NCBI GenBank assembly: GCA_026996895.1
Contig: JALWJX010000125.1
Location: 1 to 33,699, forward strand
From: Candidatus Kapaibacterium sp.
GTDB taxonomy: Bacteria > Bacteroidota > Ignavibacteria > Kapaibacteriales > WFXC01
Direction of reading: 5' to 3'
Length of the DNA stretch: 33,699 nt
Positions 9,016-26,360 of this stretch are shown in pieces. Each line of letters opens with the position of its first letter. Position 1 is the first letter of the stretch. Made by a program: the position numbers and the translations under genes. A model generated the notes under the pieces. The model saw only the letters and a program-made list of their open reading frames with translations. It searched no databases and was not told the DNA's origin.

Positions 9016-9160
9016 GGGAGCGCCTCTCTGGGAGCCCCGGCTTCAGCCGGCACCAACTGGAGCGCCGGCTTTAGCCGGCAAAAGATGCACCCTAAAGGGT
9101 GCGCTCCCAGTAAATGCACCCTAAAGGGTGCGCTCCCAGTAACTGGAGCGCCGGCTTTGT
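9016..9160. repeat. Palindromic repeat cluster A
   Basis: Cluster of short GC-rich palindromes between the divergent cargo gene and methyltransferase gene. GGAGCCCCGGCTTCAGCCGG begins at 9031; GGAGCGCCGGCTTTAGCCGG begins at 9059 and is partly repeated at 9145-9158. A 29-bp unit containing GCACCCTAAAGGGTGC is present twice in exact tandem, at 9085-9113 and 9114-9142. GCCGGC-TTTA-GCCGGC and GCACCC-TAAA-GGGTGC are perfect 6-bp hairpins with 4-nt loops. The same units recur at 26085-26360 and 31940-32135. Confidence 0.85.
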
Positions 9161-9999
9161 CAATAGCAGACACAGTGGTACAGCCCAGCTCTTTTCTCTC
9201 CTATTCGCATTTGTGCCGACGAACGTTGGTGTTGCCAACATCGGCTTTCGCCAGTTCCTTGGTACGCAAACGGGTGCACGCCAGAGTGATGGGAAGGAGA
9301 CTCGGCGCTCACGGACGATTCATTGGTTGATTCTATGGATGTTATGTGATGCTCTCGCCCCCGATTTCCCTCTCCCAGAGAGAAAAAGCACGAGGAATGC
9401 CGATTCTCGCTACCATGCTCTGGCAAGTACAATAGGGCAGCGCGGAAATCGTTCCCTTCGGCGGATAATAAAAAATTTCTGACAAATTTGGGAATCAATG
9501 AACACAATTGCCTTAGAGCACTGGTCACGGGAAGTTGGCTATGCTTTGCGTGCACCGGTGGATGTCCTCAAGTTCAAAGGAAGCAATCAGCAGCGAGGGT
9601 ATGAGCGGGCAGGAGTGGAAGGGGTTAAGCGGAAAGTTGATGTATGGACTAAGCGTCAATTCAGGCAACCCACGAAACGCGCTGCTCAATGCCCACCGTC
9701 CGGTGGTGCTTGCTCTGGACAGTCCCCAGGAGTTAAAAATCCCCGGACCTCAAGGCAAAGCCTGATCACTCAGCTATCTGGGCTGCGGCGTCGGACAGAA
9801 AAAGCAGCATCTGATGTCGGTGTATTAGCCACTGAACAGCGCCTTCGAGCACGAACACCTCGATTCCAACCCCAACAGTGTGTTGCAGCCGAGCCAATCC
9901 AGAGGCTGGGGTCCATAGTCGAGCTTTCAACTGGCCTGCGCACAGTCACAAGGCGGAGAAATGCCGATCATCAGAAGTTGACATACGAAAGGAGCATTG
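9161..9999. other. Gap without a convincing gene, upstream of the methyltransferase
   Basis: About 840 nt between repeat cluster A and the first gene of the NurA-HerA block. Open frames here (for example plus strand 9498-10022 and 9535-9765, minus strand 9160-9555) lack ribosome-binding sites, recognisable domains and protein-like composition. An AT-rich patch at 9466-9495 could hold promoter elements, but I found no convincing box pair. AAGGAG at 9989-9994 is the ribosome-binding site of the following gene. The stretch may be decayed DNA at the edge of a transferred block, or may contain an RNA I cannot recognise. Confidence 0.5.
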
Positions 10000-12900
10000 A
10001 TGGATCTTACGCAGTCGCTTGAAAAAATTCATCAATATGCTTCCACCTTTCGGCAGTTTGTGCAGAGCGCTACGTCTCGGGTGCACAACGAGGCAGAATT
10101 TGAACGCCAGATCAACAACGAAATCGAACACATAGCGGAACGACTTGGTGTGAAGTTATTGGCTCGCGAGCAGTATACCCTGGCCACAGGTCGCGCCGAC
10201 GCTGTTTACAACCGGTTCGTTATCGAGTACGAACCACCAGGTTCCTTGCGACCCAATTTGAACCACAGTCGCACCAAGCATGCCGTGCAGCAGGTTAAGG
10301 ACTACATTGTGGGGCTGGCGAAAGCAGAAAAACACGACCGCGACCGCCTGCTGGGCGTGGCTTTTGACGGACATTATTTCATCTTCGTTCGCTACCACGA
10401 GGGCCACTGGATCGTCGAAGAACCGCTGGAGGTCAACGAGAACTCCTGTGAACGCTTCCTGCGCGCGCTGTTCTCCCTCTCCTCCGGCCGGGCACTCATC
10501 TCTGAAAATCTGGTAGAAGATTTCGGCAGCCAGAACCTTCTGAGCCACCAGGTGACCCGTGCCCTCTACAATGCACTCGAGGGGCACTCCGACGACCTGA
10601 CAGCTCACCTGTTCGAGCAGTGGAAACTGTTCTTCGGCGAAACCGCAGGGGCGGACGCCGCAGCCGGCGAACTGAAACACAAAAAGGAACTGCGCGCCTT
10701 TGCCCGGGGGATGGGGCTGCGCGGCGAACCGGTGGACATGCCCCGCTTCCTCTTTGCTCTGCATACCTACTTTTCCTTTCTGGTCAAGAACACCGCGCGG
10801 CTGGTGCTTCAGGCATATGCCGGCGGCAGCCTGGGAACCACACCGCTGACTACCGTTGCCAACCTGCAAGGTGAGGCTCTGCGCCGCGAACTGCGCAACC
10901 TGGAAAGCGGCGGTCTCTTTCGCGCTCTGGGTCTCAAAAACCTACTGGAAGGCGACTTCTTCGCCTGGTATCTCGATGCCTGGAACCCTGACATCGAAGA
11001 GGCACTGCGGCAGGTGCTGACCCGCCTGGCCGAATACAACCCGGTCACCGTGCAGGACGATCCCTACAGTGCCCGCGACCTGCTGAAGAAACTCTACCAC
11101 TACCTGTTGCCGCGCGACATACGCCACGACCTGGGCGAGTTCTACACCCCCGACTGGCTGGCTGAACGTCTGCTCACTATGCTGGGCGAGTCGTGGTTCA
11201 CTATGCCCAGGAAAAACCGCTCACCTCGAGGGCTACCCAAGAAACGTCTGCTCGATCCGGCTTGCGGCTCCGGCACCTTCCTGGTGCTGGCCATTCGCGC
11301 CTTCAAGGCCAACTGCACCCTGGCCGGGCTGGCGGAAGCTGACACGCTGGAGATGATCCTCAACAGCATAGTAGGCATTGACCTGAATCCCCTGGCCGTC
11401 ACCGCGGCGCGAGTGAACTACCTGCTCGCCATCGCCGACCTGCTGCCCTACCGCCGCGGGGAGGTGGAAATCCCGGTCTATCTGGCTGACAGCATCCTGA
11501 CGCCGGCGCGAGGAAAGGAGCTCTTCACCCAGCACCGCCGCATTTTAGAGACTGCGGTAGGACCGCTGCCTGTGCCCGAGGTCATCGACACCCGCGCCGA
11601 GATGGAGCGCCTGACGGACCTGCTGGAGGAGTATGTCAGCAGCGACTTCACGACCGAGGCCTTTCTGACGCGATGCAAACAGGAAATTCCCGACCTCAGA
11701 GAAGCACCTCATGCCGACGAGGTGCTGACCGAACTGTACGAAAGACTGCGCGACCTACACCGCCGGGGCCTGGACGGCATCTGGGCGCGGGTGCTCAAAA
11801 ACGCCTTTATGCCCCTTTTTCTGGAACCCTTCGACTACGTGGTGGGAAACCCGCCGTGGATCAACTGGGAAAGTTTGCCCCAGGGATACCGACAACAGGT
11901 CGCTCCGCTCTGGAAGGATTATGCTCTGTTTCAACACAAAGGATTTGACGCCATATTGGGCAAAGCCAAAGACGATATATCCGCACTGATGACCTATGTG
12001 GCCGCCGACCGCTATTTGAAGGATGGTGGCAAACTGGCCTTCGTCATCACCCAGAGTGTGTGGAAAACTGTTGGCGGCGGCCAGGGCTTCCGCCGCTTCC
12101 GCATCGGCGAGAGCGGTCCCTTTCTGCGCGTGCTCCACGTGGACGACCTGAGCAGCCTGCGGGTCTTTGAAGGCGCAAGTACCCGTACCAGCATCTTCAT
12201 CCTGCAAAAGGGCAAACCCACCCGTTATCCCGTGCCCTACACCTACTGGAAGAAAACCACCCGCGGCAAGGGACTGGACTACGACAGCACGCTGGATGAA
12301 GTAGAGACCCAAACGCAACGCTTCCACTTTTTCGCCACGCCGGTGGATGCCAACGACCCGACCAGCTCCTGGCTGACCGCCCGCCGCAAGGCGCTGGACG
12401 CCGTGCGCAAGGTGCTGGGACCGTCGGAGTATCAGGCTCACGCCGGGGTTACTACCTGGGCCAACGCCGTGTATTGGCTGGACATTCTGGCCGAGCGGCC
12501 GGATGGCCTGCTGGTGGTGCGCAATGTGACCGAAGGAGCCAAGCGGGATGTAGACTCCATCACCGTCGAACTGGAACCGGACCTGGTCTATCCTCTGCTG
12601 CGCGGCCGGGATGTACGGCGCTGGTATGCCGTACCAACTTACTATATCCTGCTCACTCACCGAAAAGGTGACCGTCTAAATGCCATCCCAGAGCAGGAGA
12701 TGCAGCAGCACTATCCCAAGACCTGGGCTTACTTGAAGCGCTTTGAGAAGCCCCTGCGCGAGCGCTCCGGCTTCAAACGCTACTTCACCCGCAAGGACAA
12801 ACGGGGGCAAATTGTCGAGACCGGCCCCTTCTATTCCATGTTCAACGTCGGCGACTACACCTTCGCCCCGTGGAAGGTGGTGTGGCCCTGGATATCGCGG

Positions 12901-13329
12901 GACATTGTGGCGTCGGTTATCGGGGAAACGGATGGAAAACCGATAATTCCAGATAACAACGTTACATTTTTAGCTTTTCCAAGTGATATAGAAGCTTTCG
13001 GTGTTGCTGCGATTCTAAATTGTTCGGTGTTTCGCTTTATAGTACGTGCTTTTTATTCTGGTGGCGGTGGAGGTATAGGTAGGCCAGCTGTATTAACCAG
13101 AGTACGCATCGAACAGTTTAGGGAATCAAATCTGCCATACCTTCAATTAGCAAAACTCTCCCGCTGCGCCCACGAGTTGGCTCCGCGGGCATATCAGGGT
13201 GACGAAGCCGCGCAGGCGGAACTGAGGCAGGTGGAAGCCGAGATCGACCGCCTCGCGGCGCAGTTGTGGGATCTGAGCGAGGAAGAATTGCGGGAGATTC
13301 AGGCAAGTTTGGAAGAGTTGCGGGGATAG
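10000..13329 (+). CDS. N6-adenine DNA methyltransferase with N-terminal RecB-like nuclease domain (type IIG/Eco57I-like)
   Basis: 1,109-residue protein resembling single-chain restriction-modification enzymes. The N-terminal ~150 residues look like a PD-(D/E)XK nuclease: GRADAV with D67, then IEYE with E76/E78 where the family normally has ExK, then a QxxxY motif (Q98-Y102) as in RecB-type nucleases. The methyltransferase core has DLGEFYTP near residue 377, the SAM-binding motif I LLDPACGSGTFL near 415-425 and the catalytic NPPW near 615. The remaining C-terminal part probably recognises the target sequence. ATG at 10000 is preferred over the TTG one codon earlier because GGAG lies 5 nt upstream. 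First gene of the seven-gene block; the next gene starts 2 nt after its stop. A patch at 12961-13140 is much more AT-rich than its flanks. Whether the nuclease domain cuts is uncertain given the missing Lys. Confidence 0.88.
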   Translation: MDLTQSLEKIHQYASTFRQFVQSATSRVHNEAEFERQINNEIEHIAERLGVKLLAREQYTLATGRADAVYNRFVIEYEPPGSLRPNLNHSRTKHAVQQVKDYIVGLAKAEKHDRDRLLGVAFDGHYFIFVRYHEGHWIVEEPLEVNENSCERFLRALFSLSSGRALISENLVEDFGSQNLLSHQVTRALYNALEGHSDDLTAHLFEQWKLFFGETAGADAAAGELKHKKELRAFARGMGLRGEPVDMPRFLFALHTYFSFLVKNTARLVLQAYAGGSLGTTPLTTVANLQGEALRRELRNLESGGLFRALGLKNLLEGDFFAWYLDAWNPDIEEALRQVLTRLAEYNPVTVQDDPYSARDLLKKLYHYLLPRDIRHDLGEFYTPDWLAERLLTMLGESWFTMPRKNRSPRGLPKKRLLDPACGSGTFLVLAIRAFKANCTLAGLAEADTLEMILNSIVGIDLNPLAVTAARVNYLLAIADLLPYRRGEVEIPVYLADSILTPARGKELFTQHRRILETAVGPLPVPEVIDTRAEMERLTDLLEEYVSSDFTTEAFLTRCKQEIPDLREAPHADEVLTELYERLRDLHRRGLDGIWARVLKNAFMPLFLEPFDYVVGNPPWINWESLPQGYRQQVAPLWKDYALFQHKGFDAILGKAKDDISALMTYVAADRYLKDGGKLAFVITQSVWKTVGGGQGFRRFRIGESGPFLRVLHVDDLSSLRVFEGASTRTSIFILQKGKPTRYPVPYTYWKKTTRGKGLDYDSTLDEVETQTQRFHFFATPVDANDPTSSWLTARRKALDAVRKVLGPSEYQAHAGVTTWANAVYWLDILAERPDGLLVVRNVTEGAKRDVDSITVELEPDLVYPLLRGRDVRRWYAVPTYYILLTHRKGDRLNAIPEQEMQQHYPKTWAYLKRFEKPLRERSGFKRYFTRKDKRGQIVETGPFYSMFNVGDYTFAPWKVVWPWISRDIVASVIGETDGKPIIPDNNVTFLAFPSDIEAFGVAAILNCSVFRFIVRAFYSGGGGGIGRPAVLTRVRIEQFRESNLPYLQLAKLSRCAHELAPRAYQGDEAAQAELRQVEAEIDRLAAQLWDLSEEELREIQASLEELRG

Positions 13330-13331
13330 CT

Positions 13332-14327
13332 ATGGCCCTTTGGATGCGTGGAAGTGTTTCTTTTGTCGCCCTGCGAGAGTTGATCGGCTACATTGCACAA
13401 CACCCTGAGGGCGTACGGCCCAAAGAGATAGAGGTGTGGGCGCGTGAGAAAGCACATCTTCGTACCCAGAACGGCAAGATAGTTTCAAAAACTACAGTCT
13501 ACCATTATCGCAACACCTTACGTCACTTGGGAATTTTGGTCGTGGTCAATAGGCGTTATCAGATTGCCAGAGAGAACCCGTTGGTATCCGAACTCTTGGA
13601 AGTCATCCAGCCAGGTACTCTTGGGCTTTCGCTCCAAGAGCGAGAATGCTTTGCCCAGTTTGTTGTTCGCAATCCAGATTGTCGCGCATATTTTTTTGAT
13701 CTCTTCATGCCGCAAGATATTGTAACCTACGACCTGGAAGGCTTTCTGGACAAGGGACAACCGGTCGTTTGGCGACGGGTAGAAAGAGAGAACAAGCGCA
13801 TTGAGGAGATCTATAATGTGGAACAGGACGAAAAGCGATGCTGGATTCGGTCCGAGGACGAACGACAGGCTATTCTCTATGGAGTGCGCTATTGGGCACG
13901 CAACGAGTTGGGATTCATCGAAGAAATTTTCTTGGAAGGGACAGGGGGGCTGATGTTTCCCGTTTACCTGCGTGGGCCAGTTCCGGATCCACGGGTTCTG
14001 AACGCCCTTCGGGAAACCATCTCTGAACAAGACGGATGGACGCTCCTTTCCCTGCGAAAATTGGCGGCTGCATGGGGACCCAAGTATCGCATCTCTCTGG
14101 ATAGGCTTTATGGAACTCTGGAATGGATGTATCACCAATTTCCCCAATATGTGGTTCTCATTCCCACTTCAGAGTCCTTTGCCACGATTATGGCTACATC
14201 CCCCCAAGCCGAAAAGTATCATTTGCGCGGTTACTACCAAGATGAAAAAGGGCGTTATATTTCTCACATACGGGTTTATCGAAAACTAAAGGAAGTCGTG
14301 CTATGGCCAGAAACCTTGACTATTTGA
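13332..14327 (+). CDS. Unknown protein with N-terminal winged-helix-like region
   Basis: 331-residue protein I do not recognise. Residues ~15-80 read like a winged helix-turn-helix: a helix on LRELIGYIAQHPEGV, a recognition-like helix on SKTTVYHYRNTLRHLG, and a beta wing on ILVVVNRRYQIA. The rest is mixed alpha/beta with a conserved-looking segment around YWARNELGFIEEIFLEGTGG. No signal peptide or membrane segment. ATG at 13332 follows the methyltransferase stop by 2 nt. A longer frame runs back to 13266 inside that gene, but the shorter start is the natural one. Its 3' end overlaps the AAA ATPase gene by 25 nt. By position it is probably a DNA-binding or adaptor subunit of the same system, perhaps the regulator; this is inference. 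Confidence 0.75.
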   Translation: MALWMRGSVSFVALRELIGYIAQHPEGVRPKEIEVWAREKAHLRTQNGKIVSKTTVYHYRNTLRHLGILVVVNRRYQIARENPLVSELLEVIQPGTLGLSLQERECFAQFVVRNPDCRAYFFDLFMPQDIVTYDLEGFLDKGQPVVWRRVERENKRIEEIYNVEQDEKRCWIRSEDERQAILYGVRYWARNELGFIEEIFLEGTGGLMFPVYLRGPVPDPRVLNALRETISEQDGWTLLSLRKLAAAWGPKYRISLDRLYGTLEWMYHQFPQYVVLIPTSESFATIMATSPQAEKYHLRGYYQDEKGRYISHIRVYRKLKEVVLWPETLTI

Positions 14328-15511
14328 ACTTACATTTTAACCCTTTTGAGCCTGCAGCCAGTGGTGTACCTCTGGTCGACAGATTGTGGGTGCCAGAGCG
14401 ATGGAAATCCTCGCTTCAGCGATTCCTCGACGGAATGCAGCGAACCCAAGGAGCGAAGGCCTTTGCCATCCTTGGTGAATATGGAAGTGGAAAGACATAC
14501 CTGCTACACTGGTTGGAACGTGAAGAGCTGTCCAAGCGCCGAATCCGCGCGTTCTTTTTTGATAATCCCGGTGTTCAGTTCTATGATTTGGCGAACGCTC
14601 TTATGCGCCAATTGGGACGCGAGGAGTTCGCCAAAGCCCTCTGGGAATTTCTGGATCCTCGCTTAACAGACTTCCAACCTGCTCTGTTCAGGAACAGCTT
14701 TCAAGAATGGTTGCGGACAGTCAAGAAGTACCGTCGCAGAGAAGACGCCATTCGGGAACTTTCCCGAAAAATCCAAGAAAAGGAAATCGCCGATGATGAG
14801 GAAATTCGGTACAAGTTGGCTCGACTTATCGTGGAGACCTATGAACGACCTTACTTCCAGTACAAGGATTTTGTGGCTGGACAGCGCGGTGCTCTGGTTC
14901 CTGAGAAAGAGGAAGCGCCGTATTTTGCGGCCCTCCTGCGCGCCTTGCGGCTAACAGGAGGTGCTGAATCGGTGGCTTTTTTAATCGATGAGTTTGAGGA
15001 AGTCTCCCTGCAGAAACGCCTCACTAAACGTCAGGCTCACGAATACCTGGCGACGATGAAACGATTGATCAACCTGACCGAACGAGAACAGTTCTGGATT
15101 TTTGTGGCCATGACACCCCAGGCGGCAGAAATTACGGAAAAGCTTGAGCCGGCTCTCTGGGAACGATTTATCAGTCATGGTGAGCACCGTTTCCAAATAC
15201 CACCGCTGAATAAGGAGGAAGCGAAACAACTCGTTATCCATCGCTTGGACGCAGCACGCCTCGAACAGGGTGCCTCCCAGCGCCTCGAACAAAGTGCCCC
15301 AAGAAATCCCTTGTTCCCTTTCCCGGAGGACTTGGTAGAATCTTTACGGGAAGACATTTATTCATCACCGCGACGGCTGGTCAAAGTGTGCAGCCTTGCC
15401 ATTGCCCGGGCGGCCAGCGAAGAAGTCCCTGTGCCGTTTACCGCCAAGTACCTGGAAGAAGTACAGGAAGCACTCTACCCGCGACCTGCTGAAAAGGACT
15501 CACCATCATAG
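14303..15511 (+). CDS. AAA-family ATPase
   Basis: 402-residue ATP-binding protein. Walker A is GEYGSGKT at residues 58-65 and Walker B VAFLIDE at 224-230, so nucleotide binding and hydrolysis look intact. The N-terminus (LNLHFNPFEPAAS) is the LxxNPF-like lead-in common in ORC/Cdc6-type and ExeA-type AAA ATPases that load onto or sense DNA. A charged helical stretch at ~135-185 separates the two Walker motifs. The C-terminal ~70 residues (SSPRRLVKVCSLAI...) look like the AAA lid. ATG at 14303 has AAGGAAG 7 nt upstream, within the end of the winged-helix gene. The PIN gene follows after 9 nt. Probably the ATP-driven sensor or loader of the block; no precise family could be assigned. Confidence 0.85.
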   Translation: MARNLDYLNLHFNPFEPAASGVPLVDRLWVPERWKSSLQRFLDGMQRTQGAKAFAILGEYGSGKTYLLHWLEREELSKRRIRAFFFDNPGVQFYDLANALMRQLGREEFAKALWEFLDPRLTDFQPALFRNSFQEWLRTVKKYRRREDAIRELSRKIQEKEIADDEEIRYKLARLIVETYERPYFQYKDFVAGQRGALVPEKEEAPYFAALLRALRLTGGAESVAFLIDEFEEVSLQKRLTKRQAHEYLATMKRLINLTEREQFWIFVAMTPQAAEITEKLEPALWERFISHGEHRFQIPPLNKEEAKQLVIHRLDAARLEQGASQRLEQSAPRNPLFPFPEDLVESLREDIYSSPRRLVKVCSLAIARAASEEVPVPFTAKYLEEVQEALYPRPAEKDSPS

Positions 15512-15520
15512 GAGACTGTC

Positions 15521-16300
15521 ATGGCGGACACACAGTCAAAACCCCGTCCTACAATACTTTTGGATACCAACGCTTTGCACTACATGAATTCATACTTACG
15601 GTGGGCAGAAAAGAAAAACTTACCTCCATTTCATAGTGCAGTAACATTCAAACAGGTACGGGATACTTTGCGTCGATACATGCCTGGAAGCATTGTCAAG
15701 ATGCTTCTGCAGGGAGTAAAAACCCTGGCTTTCCTTGAACAGCAGGTAGATCAACACGATCCAGTTATCTATACATCCCGGTTTGCAAAAGCAGAAGTAA
15801 TTTATGGTGTGCTTGAGGGACAAGCTCATGCACGTATGGCGCGTGAAGGTCTGCCTTATCGGATGCGTCAACGTTCGGGCGTCTTGAGCGAATTGGTTTC
15901 CATGTATTTGGAGTCACGAGATTACCAACAAGTCATAGAAGAATGGGATAATTTTTTGAATCGCCTCGAAAATGAAGGAGGCATAGCGGTCTTATATGTA
16001 GAAGACGACGAGGTCTTTTCCCGAATCGCAGAAGTGGCCGAGTTCCTGCAAAGCCGCATTTTTATGGATGTGATAGACGGCTGGATGTATGCTTGCGCCC
16101 TGGTGATGCAAGCTGAGAGAATCATTACATTTGACGGGTACTTCAAGCGTGTAATAAATAGACTACACAACCCTCAAGGGGAGTCGGACTGGCAACAATT
16201 GCAGAGTGATTTACAAAATATGCTCAAAGAAAGGTTTCCGGGAGATCCAACTTTGCCAAACGTTGAAGACCTCCCTCAAACTCTTCCCAAACCGTGGTGA
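15521..16300 (+). CDS. PIN-domain-like nuclease
   Basis: 259-residue protein whose acidic residues follow the PIN nuclease pattern: ILLDTNALH with D15, an acidic E92 in SRFAKAEVIYGVL, D183/D186 in FMDVIDGWMYA, and D205 in IITFDGYFKRV. These would coordinate the metal ions for cutting RNA or single-stranded DNA. It is longer than VapC toxins (~130-150 residues) and has no antitoxin-sized partner gene next to it, so it is unlikely to be an ordinary toxin-antitoxin pair. A GGAG site lies 5 nt after the end of the AAA gene region, 5-9 nt before ATG 15521. The gene is AT-rich (about 43% GC by hand count at 15601-15720) compared with the genes on both sides. Assignment rests on motif spacing only. 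Confidence 0.72.
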   Translation: MADTQSKPRPTILLDTNALHYMNSYLRWAEKKNLPPFHSAVTFKQVRDTLRRYMPGSIVKMLLQGVKTLAFLEQQVDQHDPVIYTSRFAKAEVIYGVLEGQAHARMAREGLPYRMRQRSGVLSELVSMYLESRDYQQVIEEWDNFLNRLENEGGIAVLYVEDDEVFSRIAEVAEFLQSRIFMDVIDGWMYACALVMQAERIITFDGYFKRVINRLHNPQGESDWQQLQSDLQNMLKERFPGDPTLPNVEDLPQTLPKPW

Positions 16301-16307
16301 GGTAACC

Positions 16308-17438
16308 ATGCCCAACCCATTCCAACCACTCCAACAAGCCCTGCGCACTCTGGTGGAAAACGCCGAGATATTGCCGGCCACCGGGCAGGCGGTAACAGAT
16401 ATGGTCACGCCGGACATCGAGGAAATCTACGACCGCCACACCACTGGCGACGCAACCGTGCAGACCGTTTGGGAGACAGATGCCCGCTCACTTTACCGCA
16501 CCGTCGAGCCGATTCCACGGACGCAAGAGCACGGCTTCCGTTATTTCGTGGATGGATCGGCCCGCACGTATTTTATCGGGACGCTTCTGGAGCAGGACCG
16601 CTCCACCCCTGTGCAGATCTCCCAGGTCGGTGCGGCTATGGTCAAGCGGGAAGACGATGGCCACATTCGGGTTGCGGCAAGTCGCCACAAAATTCTGCTC
16701 ACTCTGGAAAAAAGCCAGGTTTCCGAGCAACTGTGGGAAGAACTCGAACGCGCGCTAAAAGGAATTCCGGAGTATGATCTGTGCGACAGTACCACCAACA
16801 ACCCCTACGCGGAGAGGCAGGGTCTGCGCGAGCCCCGTCCCCGGGGCGCCCACCGGGCGAACTGGTACATGCGCGAACTGGAGGTCGAACTCGCTTCGTC
16901 GGTGCCGCGGGAGGAAAATGCCTGGCTGGTGGTGGACGGTAGTCTGGGCAAGGAATTCGAGAACTGGCAGGGTGCTCCCCTAGTGGGGGTGGCGAAAACC
17001 TTCCGCCGCGATTCGCAATTCGCCCTTGGGAGTGGACCACGGGCGAAGAAGCTGAACCTGTTTACTCTGCTCAAAGATTTGCGAGAGAATCAACGCACGA
17101 TTGTTTTCCCACGTGGTGGCGAAGGCAAAATCGTCTTCTGGTATGTGCGAATTCGTCCCCAAAAAGGACTGGACTACCCGCTGATGGGCGTGGTCAAGGT
17201 GGAAATGCCCAACCCGGACCGGGAACCGGTGGATAGCACCTTGGTCGACCGCATTAGCGGCTGGCTCATTGCCGAGCGTACAGTGACGCCCTATGGCCGC
17301 GACAGGCGCTGGCACGCTCATCTGTACCCGATTTACATTGCCGAACGCGTGATTCGCGCCCGGTTCTACTCCGAAGAAGTGCTGCGTTCGGGGATTCGCT
17401 GGCCGTTTCAGATTAGCAATCCGAGTGCGGAAAGATGA
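16308..17438 (+). CDS. NurA-domain nuclease
   Basis: 376-residue protein with the features of NurA, an RNase H-fold nuclease that works with the HerA translocase to resect DNA ends. FRYFVDGSARTYF (D82) is the first catalytic Asp in its usual DGS setting. WLVVDGSLGKE (D210) is the second, followed by LVGVAKTF, the expected GxxK element. The C-terminal HLYPIYIAERVIRARF matches the family's last motif, with Glu at the site often occupied by Asp. ATG at 16308 has GAGG 5 nt upstream; the frame remains open further upstream into the PIN gene, but those residues do not belong. The HerA gene starts within its stop codon (ATGA overlap), which strongly supports a NurA-HerA pair. Confidence 0.85.
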   Translation: MPNPFQPLQQALRTLVENAEILPATGQAVTDMVTPDIEEIYDRHTTGDATVQTVWETDARSLYRTVEPIPRTQEHGFRYFVDGSARTYFIGTLLEQDRSTPVQISQVGAAMVKREDDGHIRVAASRHKILLTLEKSQVSEQLWEELERALKGIPEYDLCDSTTNNPYAERQGLREPRPRGAHRANWYMRELEVELASSVPREENAWLVVDGSLGKEFENWQGAPLVGVAKTFRRDSQFALGSGPRAKKLNLFTLLKDLRENQRTIVFPRGGEGKIVFWYVRIRPQKGLDYPLMGVVKVEMPNPDREPVDSTLVDRISGWLIAERTVTPYGRDRRWHAHLYPIYIAERVIRARFYSEEVLRSGIRWPFQISNPSAER

Positions 17439-19147
17439 AGGGACAAGATATGGAGCAGGACATGCAAGGTAAAAAGAACGAAGTTATTGGGCGGGCATCC
17501 GCCACGGAGCGTGATCCGAATACCGCAGAAAAGTTCAAGTTCTGGATTCGTCCGGGCCAAATGGTCAATCCTTTTGACATTGTCGCTGCCGAACATTTCC
17601 CAAAAGAAGGCGAGCAGGAACCCAGTTATACCTTTGGGCTGGTGACCAACATCCAGCACATCACCGATGCCGGCGGCCATCTGGCCAATTATATCTCTAA
17701 CGACTTTGGCGAGGAAGTGGACGCGCCGCCACAAACGCCGCGTCAGGGAGCCAACGTTGCAGAAGCTGCCGTGCTTTCCAACAGCGCCGACATTTACATG
17801 CCGGTACAAAACGAGGCGCGCGTGTACTTCGCCGATGAGGATAAAATCCACGAAGCCCTCGGCATCGACGGTATTCCTGAAAAGCGACGGGTGCCGGCCG
17901 GGTTGATTCAGATGAGCAACGGGACCCAAGCCGTAGCCTACCTCGATCGAGACTTCGTCCTAGGACCTGAAGCAGGACACGTGAACATCTCAGGCATCTC
18001 TGGCCTGGCTACCAAGACCTCCTATGCGATGTTCCTCATTCAGTCCATCTTGCAAACCGGTCCCGCCGAGGAGATCGCCGTCATTCTGCTCAATGTGAAA
18101 TACGACGACCTGTTACGCATCCACGAGCCCCGCAAACTTACCGAAGAGGAGCACACTTTGTGGCAACAACTGGGCTTATGTCCCGAACCATGGGCTACCG
18201 ACCGCGTGCACTACTTACTCCCCTGGGGCAAGCAAACCCATGCCACTGGACGTCCTAACACCTTCGCCGATCCACCGCCGCCTCACCGAGCTTACGCCTA
18301 CGATCTACGTGGAACGGCTTCCAAGTTGGACCTGCTCTTTTCTGACATTCCCGACAGCACGGGAACTCTGGCATCAATTGTTGGTGAGGTGATGACTGGC
18401 ATCGCCGGTAATGAGCGGGCGTGGCAGGGAGTACAAACCTGGGACGACCTGCTGACAAAACCCCCTTTGGTCCAGCAAGGCATCCCGCAAAAGTTTCGCA
18501 ACATCCACGCCTCCAGCGTGGGACGGTTCCTGCGGCTGTTACGACGAGTGGTGAAGACGCGACAAAGCGGCATTTTTGTGCCGCGGCTTTCGACCCGCAT
18601 GACTACCATCGAGCACGAGATTGGCAACATTCACGGGGGACACACTTACGTGGTAGACATCGCCCGCCTGGCTCCCGAAGAACAAACCCTTGTCTTTGGT
18701 GACGTGTTACGCACCGTGTATGGACTCTACTCCGGTGAGACCCTGCCTTTTGATGATTACGAACCTCCCAAACGGGTCATCATCTTTGTGGACGAGCTCA
18801 ACAAGTACGCCCCTGCCCGTGGCAAAGGAGAATCGTCCCCCATTCTGGACCAAATTTTAGATATCGCAGAACGCGGGCGTTCCTTCGGAATCATTCTGTT
18901 CTCCGCCCAGCAATTCCTCAGCGCCGTACACGAACGCGTCACCGGCAACTCGGCCACCAAAGTGCTGGGCCGAACGGATAGCGCCGAAATTAATACAGGC
19001 AATTATCGCTTTCTTGCCCAAGACATCCGCTATCATCTCACTCGTCTGGAAAAGGGCGAGATGATTCTCACGCATCCCATTTACCGGCAGCCAGTGAAGA
19101 TTCACTTCCCGAAACCACCTTTCCGGCAGGGGCGAGCAGAGAAATGA
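17435..19147 (+). CDS. HerA-like ATPase with altered Walker A
   Basis: 570-residue HerA/FtsK-superfamily ATPase, expected to form a hexameric ring that moves DNA and partners NurA. The N-terminus holds a HAS-barrel-like region (GQMVNPFDIV..., residues ~40-75). Walker A would be at 187-196 but reads GISGLATKTS: one residue longer than GxTGxGKS, with Thr in place of the glycine before Lys. Walker B is normal (IIFVDELNKYAP, D453-E454), and the later SAQQFLSAV...GNSATKVLGRT segment matches HerA sensor motifs. So the protein is a HerA relative, perhaps of a subfamily with a modified P-loop. It overlaps NurA by 4 nt (ATGA) and the downstream methyltransferase by 4 nt (ATGA), indicating coupled translation. 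Confidence 0.88.
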   Translation: MKGQDMEQDMQGKKNEVIGRASATERDPNTAEKFKFWIRPGQMVNPFDIVAAEHFPKEGEQEPSYTFGLVTNIQHITDAGGHLANYISNDFGEEVDAPPQTPRQGANVAEAAVLSNSADIYMPVQNEARVYFADEDKIHEALGIDGIPEKRRVPAGLIQMSNGTQAVAYLDRDFVLGPEAGHVNISGISGLATKTSYAMFLIQSILQTGPAEEIAVILLNVKYDDLLRIHEPRKLTEEEHTLWQQLGLCPEPWATDRVHYLLPWGKQTHATGRPNTFADPPPPHRAYAYDLRGTASKLDLLFSDIPDSTGTLASIVGEVMTGIAGNERAWQGVQTWDDLLTKPPLVQQGIPQKFRNIHASSVGRFLRLLRRVVKTRQSGIFVPRLSTRMTTIEHEIGNIHGGHTYVVDIARLAPEEQTLVFGDVLRTVYGLYSGETLPFDDYEPPKRVIIFVDELNKYAPARGKGESSPILDQILDIAERGRSFGIILFSAQQFLSAVHERVTGNSATKVLGRTDSAEINTGNYRFLAQDIRYHLTRLEKGEMILTHPIYRQPVKIHFPKPPFRQGRAEK

Positions 19148-20373
19148 GAAGCCAAAAGCTTCCACCACTGCCAGAAGGCTTCGAATACCGTCTGGACCTA
19201 CGCCATTATGTGACTCCTAAGCTGCTTAAAGCCCAGCCTGTCCATCGCTGGTTCTGGTTTCCGCACAGTTTTTCGCCTCAATTAGTGGATGAGATTCTCC
19301 AGGCATTCCCGTTACCCAACGGCGGACGGGTTCTTGACCCCTTCGTCGGTGCTGGCACCACCGTGTTGCGAGCCGCTCAATCGGGATATTCTGCGGCAGG
19401 CGTGGATCTCTCTCCGCTTAGCTTGTTCGTCAGCCAGGTCAAAGTAGCACCGCTGGCGAAGGCTGCTCTCGCAGAATATTTGAGATTTGTCCTGGCGTAT
19501 CGGCCAGTCCAAGACCTTCCCACCTTGCCAGCGCGGATGCGCAAAGCCCTCTCCCCAAACGAACTGGCCCACTTGTATGGCCTGCGCCAACAAATTGCCC
19601 AACTTCCCCAACTATACGCCAACTTTTTTCTCCTCGTCCTTCTCCGCACACAGCAACGAATAAGCCGTGCCGTGCCAGATGGGGGATGGTTCCGCTGGGT
19701 ACAAAAACCGGATCAGAGCACGTTGATTGCCGGCTGGTTTGAAGAACAGGCAAGGGTTCACATGGAGGACGTGCCGACCGAGGCTTTCCGGTATCCTTCG
19801 ATTCAGCTTCTCTACGACGATGCTCGTCGGTTGGACCGTCTTCAAGGAGTATTTGATCTGGTGGTGACATCGCCCCCTTATCCTAACCGCCACGATTATT
19901 CTCGCATTTTTCACATCGAACTTCTAACCATAGGGTTACGTGAAGACGAAGTCAGACAGTTCCGATATTCCTCTTTACGCTCCCATGTCGAGGCGAAACA
20001 GCCGGTACAGATAAACGGCAGCTATCCTTCTTTCCCGAAGTTGGAAAAGGCTCTGGCATCCTTGCCGGACAGCGCAGATCCACGAATCTTACCGATGCTC
20101 CGGGGATATTTCGAGGACCTCTATTTGACGCTCAGAACCCTACACCAACACTTGGTCCCAGGAGCTCTTTGTGCCTTTGTAGTGGGCAATGTTCGCCACG
20201 CTGGGGTAATGATCCCTGTCGATGAGATCTTAGTCCAAATAGCGGAACAGAGCGGGTATTCTTTTTTAGGTGCCTGGGTGGCTCGCCTGCGCGGCAACAG
20301 TGCACAGCAGATGGGACGTTTCGGGCGCCAGCCGGCACGAGAAAGCATTGTGTTGCTCCAGCGGGAGAGATAG
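19144..20373 (+). CDS. DNA methyltransferase (amino-methylating, N4-cytosine or N6-adenine)
   Basis: 409-residue SAM-dependent DNA methyltransferase. Motif I DPFVGAGTT is at residues 65-73 with the following GVDLSPLS. The catalytic motif IV TSPPYPNR is at 242-249, followed by HDYSRIFHIELL. The ~170 residues between them are helical and probably carry target recognition. The SPPY form occurs in both N4-cytosine and N6-adenine enzymes, so the base cannot be told from sequence. The motif order (I before IV) differs from the classical beta-class order. Last gene of the block and joined to HerA by an ATGA overlap. No separate restriction endonuclease gene follows, so its protective mark may be read by the NurA-HerA complex or the first gene's nuclease domain; that link is inference. 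Confidence 0.87.
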   Translation: MRSQKLPPLPEGFEYRLDLRHYVTPKLLKAQPVHRWFWFPHSFSPQLVDEILQAFPLPNGGRVLDPFVGAGTTVLRAAQSGYSAAGVDLSPLSLFVSQVKVAPLAKAALAEYLRFVLAYRPVQDLPTLPARMRKALSPNELAHLYGLRQQIAQLPQLYANFFLLVLLRTQQRISRAVPDGGWFRWVQKPDQSTLIAGWFEEQARVHMEDVPTEAFRYPSIQLLYDDARRLDRLQGVFDLVVTSPPYPNRHDYSRIFHIELLTIGLREDEVRQFRYSSLRSHVEAKQPVQINGSYPSFPKLEKALASLPDSADPRILPMLRGYFEDLYLTLRTLHQHLVPGALCAFVVGNVRHAGVMIPVDEILVQIAEQSGYSFLGAWVARLRGNSAQQMGRFGRQPARESIVLLQRER

Positions 20374-26084: not shown

Positions 26085-26360
26085 GGAGCGCCCTAACTGG
26101 GGCGCCGGCTTTAGCCGGCAACGTTGCAAATGTGTAGGGGCGACCGGCCGGTCGCCCCTACGGGTGGGGTGTGGCAAGGATATAGACGCCAGCGATGGAA
26201 GCGCCGGCTTTCGCCGGCATGCACACTGAAGCGTGCGTTCCCAGCCACTAGGAGCGCCAGCTTTAGCCGGCATGCACGCTGAAGTGTGCGCTCCCAGACC
26301 ACGGCAGTGTGCGCTCCCGATGCAATGGTAGGAGCGCAGCGCCGCTGCGCCCCTACGGGT
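26085..26360. repeat. Palindromic repeat cluster B
   Basis: Second cluster of the family in cluster A. It contains GGGGCGCCGGCTTTAGCCGG (from 26099), a perfect 28-bp palindrome starting GTAGGGGCGACCGG (26134-26161), and two composite units at 26197-26242 and 26251-26294. A near-palindrome GTAGG(A/G)GCGCAGC-GCC-GCTGCGCC... lies at 26328-26356 and, like the 28-bp one, is followed by GGGTG. In the composite units an outer stem GGAGCGC/GCGCTCC encloses two inner hairpins. No coding sequence is visible in the cluster, nor in 26361-26575 after it. Confidence 0.85.

What the first reader, a model, noticed from the sequence alone, without database searches (positions are those of the whole stretch)
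10000..20373. Seven-gene NurA-HerA block bracketed by two DNA methyltransferases: candidate undescribed defence system
Seen: seven same-strand genes with gaps of 2-9 nt or overlaps of 4-25 nt: nuclease-methyltransferase, winged-helix protein, AAA ATPase, PIN-like nuclease, NurA, HerA, methyltransferase. Known: NurA-HerA resects DNA ends, HerA-like ATPases recur in bacterial anti-phage systems, and methyltransferases mark self DNA in restriction, BREX and DISARM systems. Inference: a self/non-self system in which unmethylated DNA triggers AAA-dependent loading of HerA-NurA, with PIN as second effector. I do not recognise this seven-gene set as BREX (no PglZ/BrxC pattern), DISARM (no DrmA/DrmB helicase pattern), Dnd or type I restriction.
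Basis: partly seen in the sequence, partly recalled or inferred. Interest (0 to 1): 0.85.

Follow-up and report, generated by a model that had tools for sequence, protein, structure and literature searches.

The report
Restriction enzyme operon with DNA-pump nuclease
Seven neighbouring genes in a Kapabacteria-type bacterium pair a DNA-cutting-and-marking enzyme with a motor that pumps and chews DNA; four of them match the gene layout of an operon already known from Thermus, where it pushes DNA out of cells, while the other three are an unusual insertion whose job is untested.

Summary
Seven intact, same-strand genes at 10000-20373 have exactly the stated spacing. The claim 'undescribed system' is only partly right. 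The first gene is a type IIG restriction-modification enzyme of the TspDTI subfamily (D-EXE, DPACGSG and NPPW motifs). With NurA, HerA and the terminal methyltransferase it reproduces the gene order, sizes and end overlap of the Thermus thermophilus ICETh1 operon TTC1877-1880 (TthHB27I, NurA, TdtA, methylase), which is needed for DNA donation ('transjugation'). I tabulated 80 HerA loci. HerA relatives above about 50% identity form one clade across roughly eleven phyla; most loci with enough flank carry this enzyme, and 13 rows also carry the methyltransferase. New here is a three-gene module (winged helix, AAA ATPase, PIN) in the slot between enzyme and NurA. The full seven-gene order recurs in a congener and in a Chloroflexota genome (Levilinea), but the module is very rare. 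Other genomes have OLD-like ATPases in that slot. Most likely mechanism: the IIG enzyme cuts unmodified DNA, HerA-NurA loads at the ends, and the methyltransferase protects the other strand. Whether the DNA is destroyed or exported is open; I lean to restriction. New variant of a known kind.

The parts
10000..13329 (+). RM: type IIG restriction enzyme-methyltransferase, TspDTI subfamily (1109 aa from ATG 10000)
   Evidence: PADLOC REase_MTase_IIG PDLC03630, 1610 bits over the full length; D67-E76-E78 (D-EXE), DPACGSG, NPPW as in TspDTI D66/E75/E77 (PMC3384240)
13332..14327 (+). WH: winged-helix protein of unknown family (ORF can start at GTG 13266; ATG 13332 better supported)
   Evidence: no Pfam, PADLOC or significant NCBIfam family; N-terminal wHTH modelled, rest low confidence; 39% identical homologue in L018
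14303..15511 (+). AAA: P-loop ATPase (AAA_22; weak BrxD/mad8/SspC similarity)
   Evidence: Walker A GEYGSGKT and Walker B FLIDEFE conserved in L018
15521..16300 (+). PIN: PIN-domain nuclease
   Evidence: PF01850 6e-6; acidic active-site residues D15, E92, D183, D186, D205 conserved
16308..17438 (+). NurA nuclease (376 aa)
   Evidence: PF09376; invariant D82, D210, K230, E299 across 17 homologues; start set by alignment
17435..19147 (+). HerA/TdtA-like hexameric translocase ATPase (570 aa)
   Evidence: 7f6d D. radiodurans HerA 7e-41; PADLOC HerA; Walker motifs invariant
19144..20373 (+). MT: N4/N6 DNA methyltransferase, candidate protector of the strand the IIG enzyme leaves unmodified (409 aa)
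   Evidence: PF01555; PADLOC MTase_II 1.6e-53; DPFVGAGTT and TSPPYPNRHDY conserved in 13 homologues

Best explanation
This is an expanded variant of the RM-NurA-HerA-methyltransferase operon family whose studied example is the tdtA operon of ICETh1 in Thermus thermophilus. Shown here: anatomy, conserved active sites, co-inheritance of the parts and recurrence of the order. Inferred: the type IIG enzyme nicks or cuts DNA at its unmodified asymmetric site; the HerA hexamer with its NurA dimer loads on those ends and translocates dsDNA into the nuclease; the terminal methyltransferase marks the strand the IIG enzyme cannot mark, so self DNA is spared. The winged-helix/AAA/PIN insertion adds regulation (winged helix), a switch or loader (AAA) and a second effector (PIN). 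My reading is that in this host the machine acts mainly as a cut-and-degrade restriction system. Export of the processed DNA, the only role shown experimentally for the core, is the main rival. About 0.85 that it belongs to this operon family; about 0.5 that degradation rather than export is the selected role.
For: Same order, sizes and -4 overlap as TTC1877-1880 (1106/377/TdtA/410 aa; gaps 4, 2, -4; PMC5365140) versus 1109/376/570/409 aa here. TspDTI-subfamily motifs with the same spacing. HerA tree: all RM-associated loci fall in one clade of 32 rows (SH-aLRT 97), and all 13 MT-bearing rows form a subclade (SH-aLRT 98). HerA-RM distance correlation r=0.60, 0 of 2000 permutations as high. Translational coupling is repeated across phyla. 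Full seven-gene order in L018 and G001. For degradation: Thermococcus HerA-NurA digests both strands of dsDNA and was argued not to resect (PMC12977600); OLD-like ATPases, a NERD helicase and an NsnA-like nuclease lie next to homologues; the distribution is patchy.
Against: The only experimental phenotype of the core is DNA donation. I could not reach the Thermus sequences, so homology to TTC1877-1880 is argued from anatomy and motifs, not alignment. Close RM homologues also occur alone (L116, L124), and NurA-HerA-MT occurs without RM (L017, L019), so the parts are separable. Nothing shows what the winged helix, AAA or PIN do.
Confidence: 0.6

Rival explanations
1. DNA-secretion (transjugation-like) operon: the IIG enzyme nicks host DNA at many sites to make origins of transfer, NurA trims the ends, and the HerA/TdtA hexamer pushes dsDNA out to neighbours that take it up by competence.
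For: In T. thermophilus HB27, no transjugants were detected without TdtA, and loss of the IIG enzyme or NurA cut donation by about 3 and 4-5 orders of magnitude (PMC5365140); the methylase matters little (PMC7767461). All 14 genomes tested that carry HerA of this clade have ComEC.
Against: ComEC is also in 10 of 14 control genomes, so it carries little weight. No integrase or bracketing att-like repeats in the window block; tRNA-Phe lies 6.5 kb away. An integrase sits beside only a few homologues, e.g. L018 and L036. A PIN/AAA/winged-helix insertion has no obvious role in export.
Confidence: 0.3
2. Ordinary type IIG restriction-modification system (RM + MT) whose NurA-HerA and other neighbours act separately, as repair genes that merely share the island.
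For: RM homologues at 40-46% identity also stand alone (L116, L121, L124); D. radiodurans NurA-HerA has been linked to recombination.
Against: RM and HerA are co-inherited and translationally coupled in about eleven phyla; in Thermus the three proteins act in one process.
Confidence: 0.08
3. The inserted winged-helix/AAA/PIN trio is an independent defence or toxin-antitoxin cassette that landed in the operon (this concerns the insertion only and can be true together with either reading of the core).
For: The slot also takes other cargo: AAA_21 in L037, an IS200-type transposase in L115; in L017 AAA_21 plus a DUF4276-like protein replaces RM.
Against: The trio was never seen outside this slot: AAA in 1 of 400 Chloroflexota genomes, winged helix and PIN not on plasmids, winged helix and AAA not in IMG/VR. 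It is tightly packed with its neighbours in both known settings.
Confidence: 0.25

Closest known systems
tdtA operon of ICETh1, Thermus thermophilus HB27 (TTC1877-TTC1880)
   Same: Type IIG enzyme of the TspDTI subfamily, NurA, HerA/FtsK-family ATPase, PF01555 methylase, in that order, with near-identical lengths and the same -4 overlap at the end
   Different: Three extra genes between RM and NurA; no integrase, att repeats or tRNA junction at the block; host is Kapabacteria; function untested
TspDTI/TthHB27I/Tth111II/TsoI type IIS-IIC-IIG enzymes
   Same: Single-chain nuclease-MTase-TRD of about 1110 aa; D-EXE at the same spacing; DPACGSG; NPPW
   Different: Target site unknown; encoded with NurA-HerA and a second MTase (as TthHB27I is)
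HerA-NurA of Deinococcus radiodurans (7f6d) and archaea
   Same: HerA ATPase plus NurA nuclease pair, overlapping genes, conserved active sites
   Different: Those stand with repair genes or alone; here the pair is tied to a restriction enzyme
SIR2-HerA and DUF4297-HerA anti-phage systems
   Same: HerA ring used with a partner enzyme (PMC12977600 discussion)
   Different: Partner here is NurA plus a type IIG enzyme; no SIR2 or DUF4297 domain found

Membership tests
tdtA-type operon (RM IIG-NurA-HerA-MTase) | Four genes in that order, same strand, tightly packed | tested here: met
   Order kept, with WH-AAA-PIN inserted after RM; uninterrupted order in L020, L023, L024, L030, L147
tdtA-type operon (RM IIG-NurA-HerA-MTase) | RM of TspDTI subfamily: D-EXE, DPACGSG, NPPW | tested here: met
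tdtA-type operon (RM IIG-NurA-HerA-MTase) | Sequence homology to TTC1877, TTC1878, TdtA, TTC1880 | not testable with these tools
   No HB27 chromosome sequence in the collections reached; only plasmid pTT27 was available
ICETh1-type integrative and conjugative element | Integrase, flanking att direct repeats, insertion in a tRNA gene | tested here: not met
   No integrase in the block; no bracketing direct repeats; tRNA-Phe 6.5 kb downstream
ICETh1-type integrative and conjugative element | DNA donation phenotype | not testable with these tools
   needs experiment
Type IIG restriction-modification system | Fused PD-(D/E)XK nuclease, N6-MTase and TRD in one chain | tested here: met
   (by profile and motif; activity not tested)
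BREX | PglZ phosphatase, BrxC/PglY, PglX | tested here: not met
   No PglZ; RM scores 36 bits against a PglX cut-off of 400, AAA about 20 against a BrxD cut-off of 350
DISARM | DrmA helicase and DrmB | tested here: not met
   No DrmA/DrmB hits; only a 17.7-bit DrmMI hit
MADS | mad1-mad8 set | tested here: not met
   Only weak mad2 and mad8 similarity
SIR2-HerA / DUF4297-HerA | SIR2 or DUF4297 partner | tested here: not met

The most novel reading that the evidence does not exclude
A restriction system in which a type IIG enzyme is only the recogniser and first nicker, and a HerA-NurA DNA pump is the real effector, gated by a winged-helix/AAA sensor and backed by a PIN nuclease. The Thermus 'DNA secretion' operon would then be a repurposed branch of a defence family spread over some eleven phyla.
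Probability: 0.35. Interest if true: 0.8.

Novelty: new variant of a known kind. Interest (0 to 1): 0.5.

Why it matters
It places a supposedly undescribed set in a known operon family and shows that family is far wider than the Thermus and Chloracidobacterium examples on record. It also makes a sharp question testable: is the TthHB27I-NurA-TdtA machine a DNA exporter, a restriction system, or both? The variable slot between RM and NurA, holding WH-AAA-PIN, OLD-like ATPases or nothing, points to exchangeable control modules for one HerA-NurA engine.

Tried and rejected
BREX, DISARM, Dnd/Ssp, MADS and SIR2/DUF4297-HerA by profile search: no match beyond shared domains. Solved-structure search with RM: none. 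IMG/VR scans with single window proteins found nothing; with alignments they gave one four-gene operon. Plasmids: RM relatives only at about 30% or less; no winged helix or PIN. Structure model of the winged-helix protein too poor for a fold search (mean pLDDT 51.7). An empty site in the same-genus genome G002 could not be shown: it lacks HerA, but its contig ends about 800 bases beyond the block edge. Promoter and terminator scans were at shuffle level; Rfam found only the tRNA. The Thermus operon could not be fetched for a direct alignment. Papers: no report of RM-NurA-HerA as a defence system found.

Full report
OBSERVATION. The seven ORFs are present at 10000-20373 on the + strand with no internal stops. 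The upstream flank is an oppositely oriented gene of unknown function followed by a Mur ligase (murE-like) and sprA; the downstream flank is a redoxin and a LonB-like protease. The host is a Kapabacteria-type genome: a relative in the same order (G015) has the same 89,896-base contig, starting with the same HerA gene, as a named Candidatus Kapabacteria MAG.

WHAT THE PROTEINS ARE. Gene 1 is not a loose nuclease-methyltransferase. It matches the PADLOC type IIG model over its full length at 1610 bits and carries D67-E76-E78, DPACGSG and NPPW (numbered from ATG 10000). TspDTI has D66, E75, E77, DPACGSG and NPPW, and its D-EXE pattern belongs to active enzymes of the TspDTI, TthHB27I, Tth111II and TsoI subfamily (PMC3384240). 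Homologues split between D-EXE and D-EXK, as that paper reports for the subfamily. Gene 2 has no known family; its N-terminal winged helix is modelled with moderate to high confidence, the rest is not. Gene 3 is a P-loop ATPase with intact Walker motifs. Gene 4 is a PIN nuclease with its acidic residues conserved. Gene 5 is NurA with invariant acidic residues. Gene 6 is HerA, closest among solved structures to D. radiodurans HerA. Gene 7 is an N4/N6 methyltransferase.

DISTRIBUTION. Tabulating the window proteins in them split the loci cleanly. At 50% HerA identity or more, the type IIG enzyme sits beside NurA-HerA in most loci with enough flank, in Chloroflexota, Bacillota, Planctomycetota, Kapabacteria, Thermokryptus, Omnitrophota, Armatimonadota, Desulfobacca, Thermodesulfobacterium, Thermodesulfovibrionales, Caldisericales and others. 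Clear exceptions with flank are L017, L019 and L041. At 35-41% identity, NurA-HerA is instead followed by an HSP90-like (GHKL) ATPase and a radical SAM protein. The HerA tree gives the same split: 32 rows holding all RM-linked loci (SH-aLRT 97) against 47 rows of which 46 carry GHKL and/or radical SAM (L010 is scored there as lacking RM only because I fetched its RM gene in two pieces). All 13 rows with the methyltransferase form one supported subclade. RM and HerA distances correlate (r 0.60, 0 of 2000 permutations as high), as do RM and MT (r 0.69, 1 of 2000). The methyltransferase rows keep RM-NurA-HerA-MT with overlaps of 4 nt or short gaps; another branch has RM after HerA. RM itself is rare: 12 of 400 Chloroflexota genomes and 1 of 345 in the window's phylum. 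Among close RM homologues some stand alone (L116, L124), so linkage is strong but not absolute.

THE INSERTION. The winged-helix/AAA/PIN trio was found in the window, in congener G001 (96-98% identical) and in Levilinea L018, which has the whole seven-gene order. Against L018, RM and HerA are 68% and 71% identical but the trio only 39-50%, so the trio evolves faster than the core. The AAA gene was in 1 of 400 Chloroflexota genomes, namely L018's own. The same slot holds an OLD-like AAA_21 ATPase in L037 and an IS200-type transposase in L115; in L017 AAA_21 plus a DUF4276-like protein replaces RM. I read the slot as a place for exchangeable control modules; that is inference.

COMPARISON WITH WHAT IS KNOWN. 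The core has been described. In T. thermophilus HB27, TTC1877 (Tth111II/TthHB27I, 1106 aa), TTC1878 (NurA, 377 aa), tdtA and TTC1880 (410 aa, PF01555) form one operon with gaps 4, 2 and -4 on the element ICETh1; TdtA is essential for DNA donation, the nuclease and restriction enzyme strongly promote it, and similar clusters were noted in T. scotoductus and Chloracidobacterium (PMC5365140). A later paper gives a cut-then-pump model and a minor role for the methylase (PMC7767461). Lengths here are 1109, 376, 570 and 409 aa. I could not fetch the Thermus proteins, so the link rests on order, sizes, overlaps, motifs and domains. The window block lacks the element-level features of ICETh1: no integrase, no bracketing repeats, no tRNA junction. 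So it is a relative of the operon, not shown to be such an element. The four-gene operon also sits on a prophage-like IMG/VR contig beside a RecE-like exonuclease and a replication initiator.

MECHANISM. Shown: intact active sites, co-inheritance, tight packing. From the literature: type IIG enzymes of this subfamily cut or nick at a distance from asymmetric sites; HerA hexamers with NurA dimers thread dsDNA and, in Thermococcus, digest both strands (PMC12977600). Inferred: RM cuts unmodified DNA, HerA-NurA loads on the ends, MT protects the other strand, and the insertion gates the machine and adds a second nuclease. Whether the DNA is destroyed or exported cannot be settled here. I lean to destruction because of the total-digestion biochemistry, the defence-like neighbours and cargo, and the missing element features. 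The experimental record favours export. ComEC in all 14 genomes tested does not discriminate, since it is in 10 of 14 control genomes. The neighbour survey was not compared with a background rate, so the defence-neighbour argument is suggestive only.

VERDICT. Observation confirmed; interpretation partly supported; new variant of a known kind.

Noticed in passing
L042-L090 (e.g. L049:8814-15105, L089:8766-15227): A separate, strongly conserved operon NurA - HerA - HSP90-like (GHKL) ATPase - radical SAM protein in Bacillota, Bacteroidota and others: strict order in 37 of 50 loci with GHKL or radical SAM, mostly with overlaps or gaps under 30 nt; no PADLOC match for the last two genes and no paper found. 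Possibly more novel than the window's set.
   Followed up: partly
L038:748-13586; L028; L039: Hybrid loci in which NurA-HerA is followed by the type IIG enzyme and also by radical SAM (and, in L038, GHKL) genes, as if both were accessory modules of one engine.
   Followed up: partly
L147:5358-13006 (IMGVR_UViG_3300045912_000930): Complete RM-NurA-HerA-MT operon on a prophage-like contig beside a RecE-like exonuclease and replication initiation genes.
   Followed up: partly
L012:2-4903 (G006): Kapabacteria relative with RM-NurA-HerA and no insertion; its RM and NurA read in several frames, so they look broken or mis-assembled.
   Followed up: no
window 9055-9158 and 26135-26318: Interspersed repeats of about 80-130 nt (GGAGCGCCGGCTTT...TGCACCCTAAAGGGTGCGCTCCC) found many times in this genus, one at the upstream edge of the block and one near where G002 departs from the window. 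Could have helped move the block.
   Followed up: partly
L011:2338-5952 (G001): In the congener the operon's upstream neighbour is not the murE-like gene but a 1204-aa ORF with helicase-like motifs, so the block or its flank has been rearranged.
   Followed up: no
window 9498-10022 (+): 174-aa ORF overlapping the RM start, conserved in G001 (L011:1357-1887), no family hit; probably not a gene.
   Followed up: no
L003, L004, L005, L006 (plasmids): HerA-like genes on cyanobacterial, Chloroflexota and Streptomyces plasmids sit beside SbcD/SbcC-like genes, another partner set for this ATPase family.
   Followed up: no
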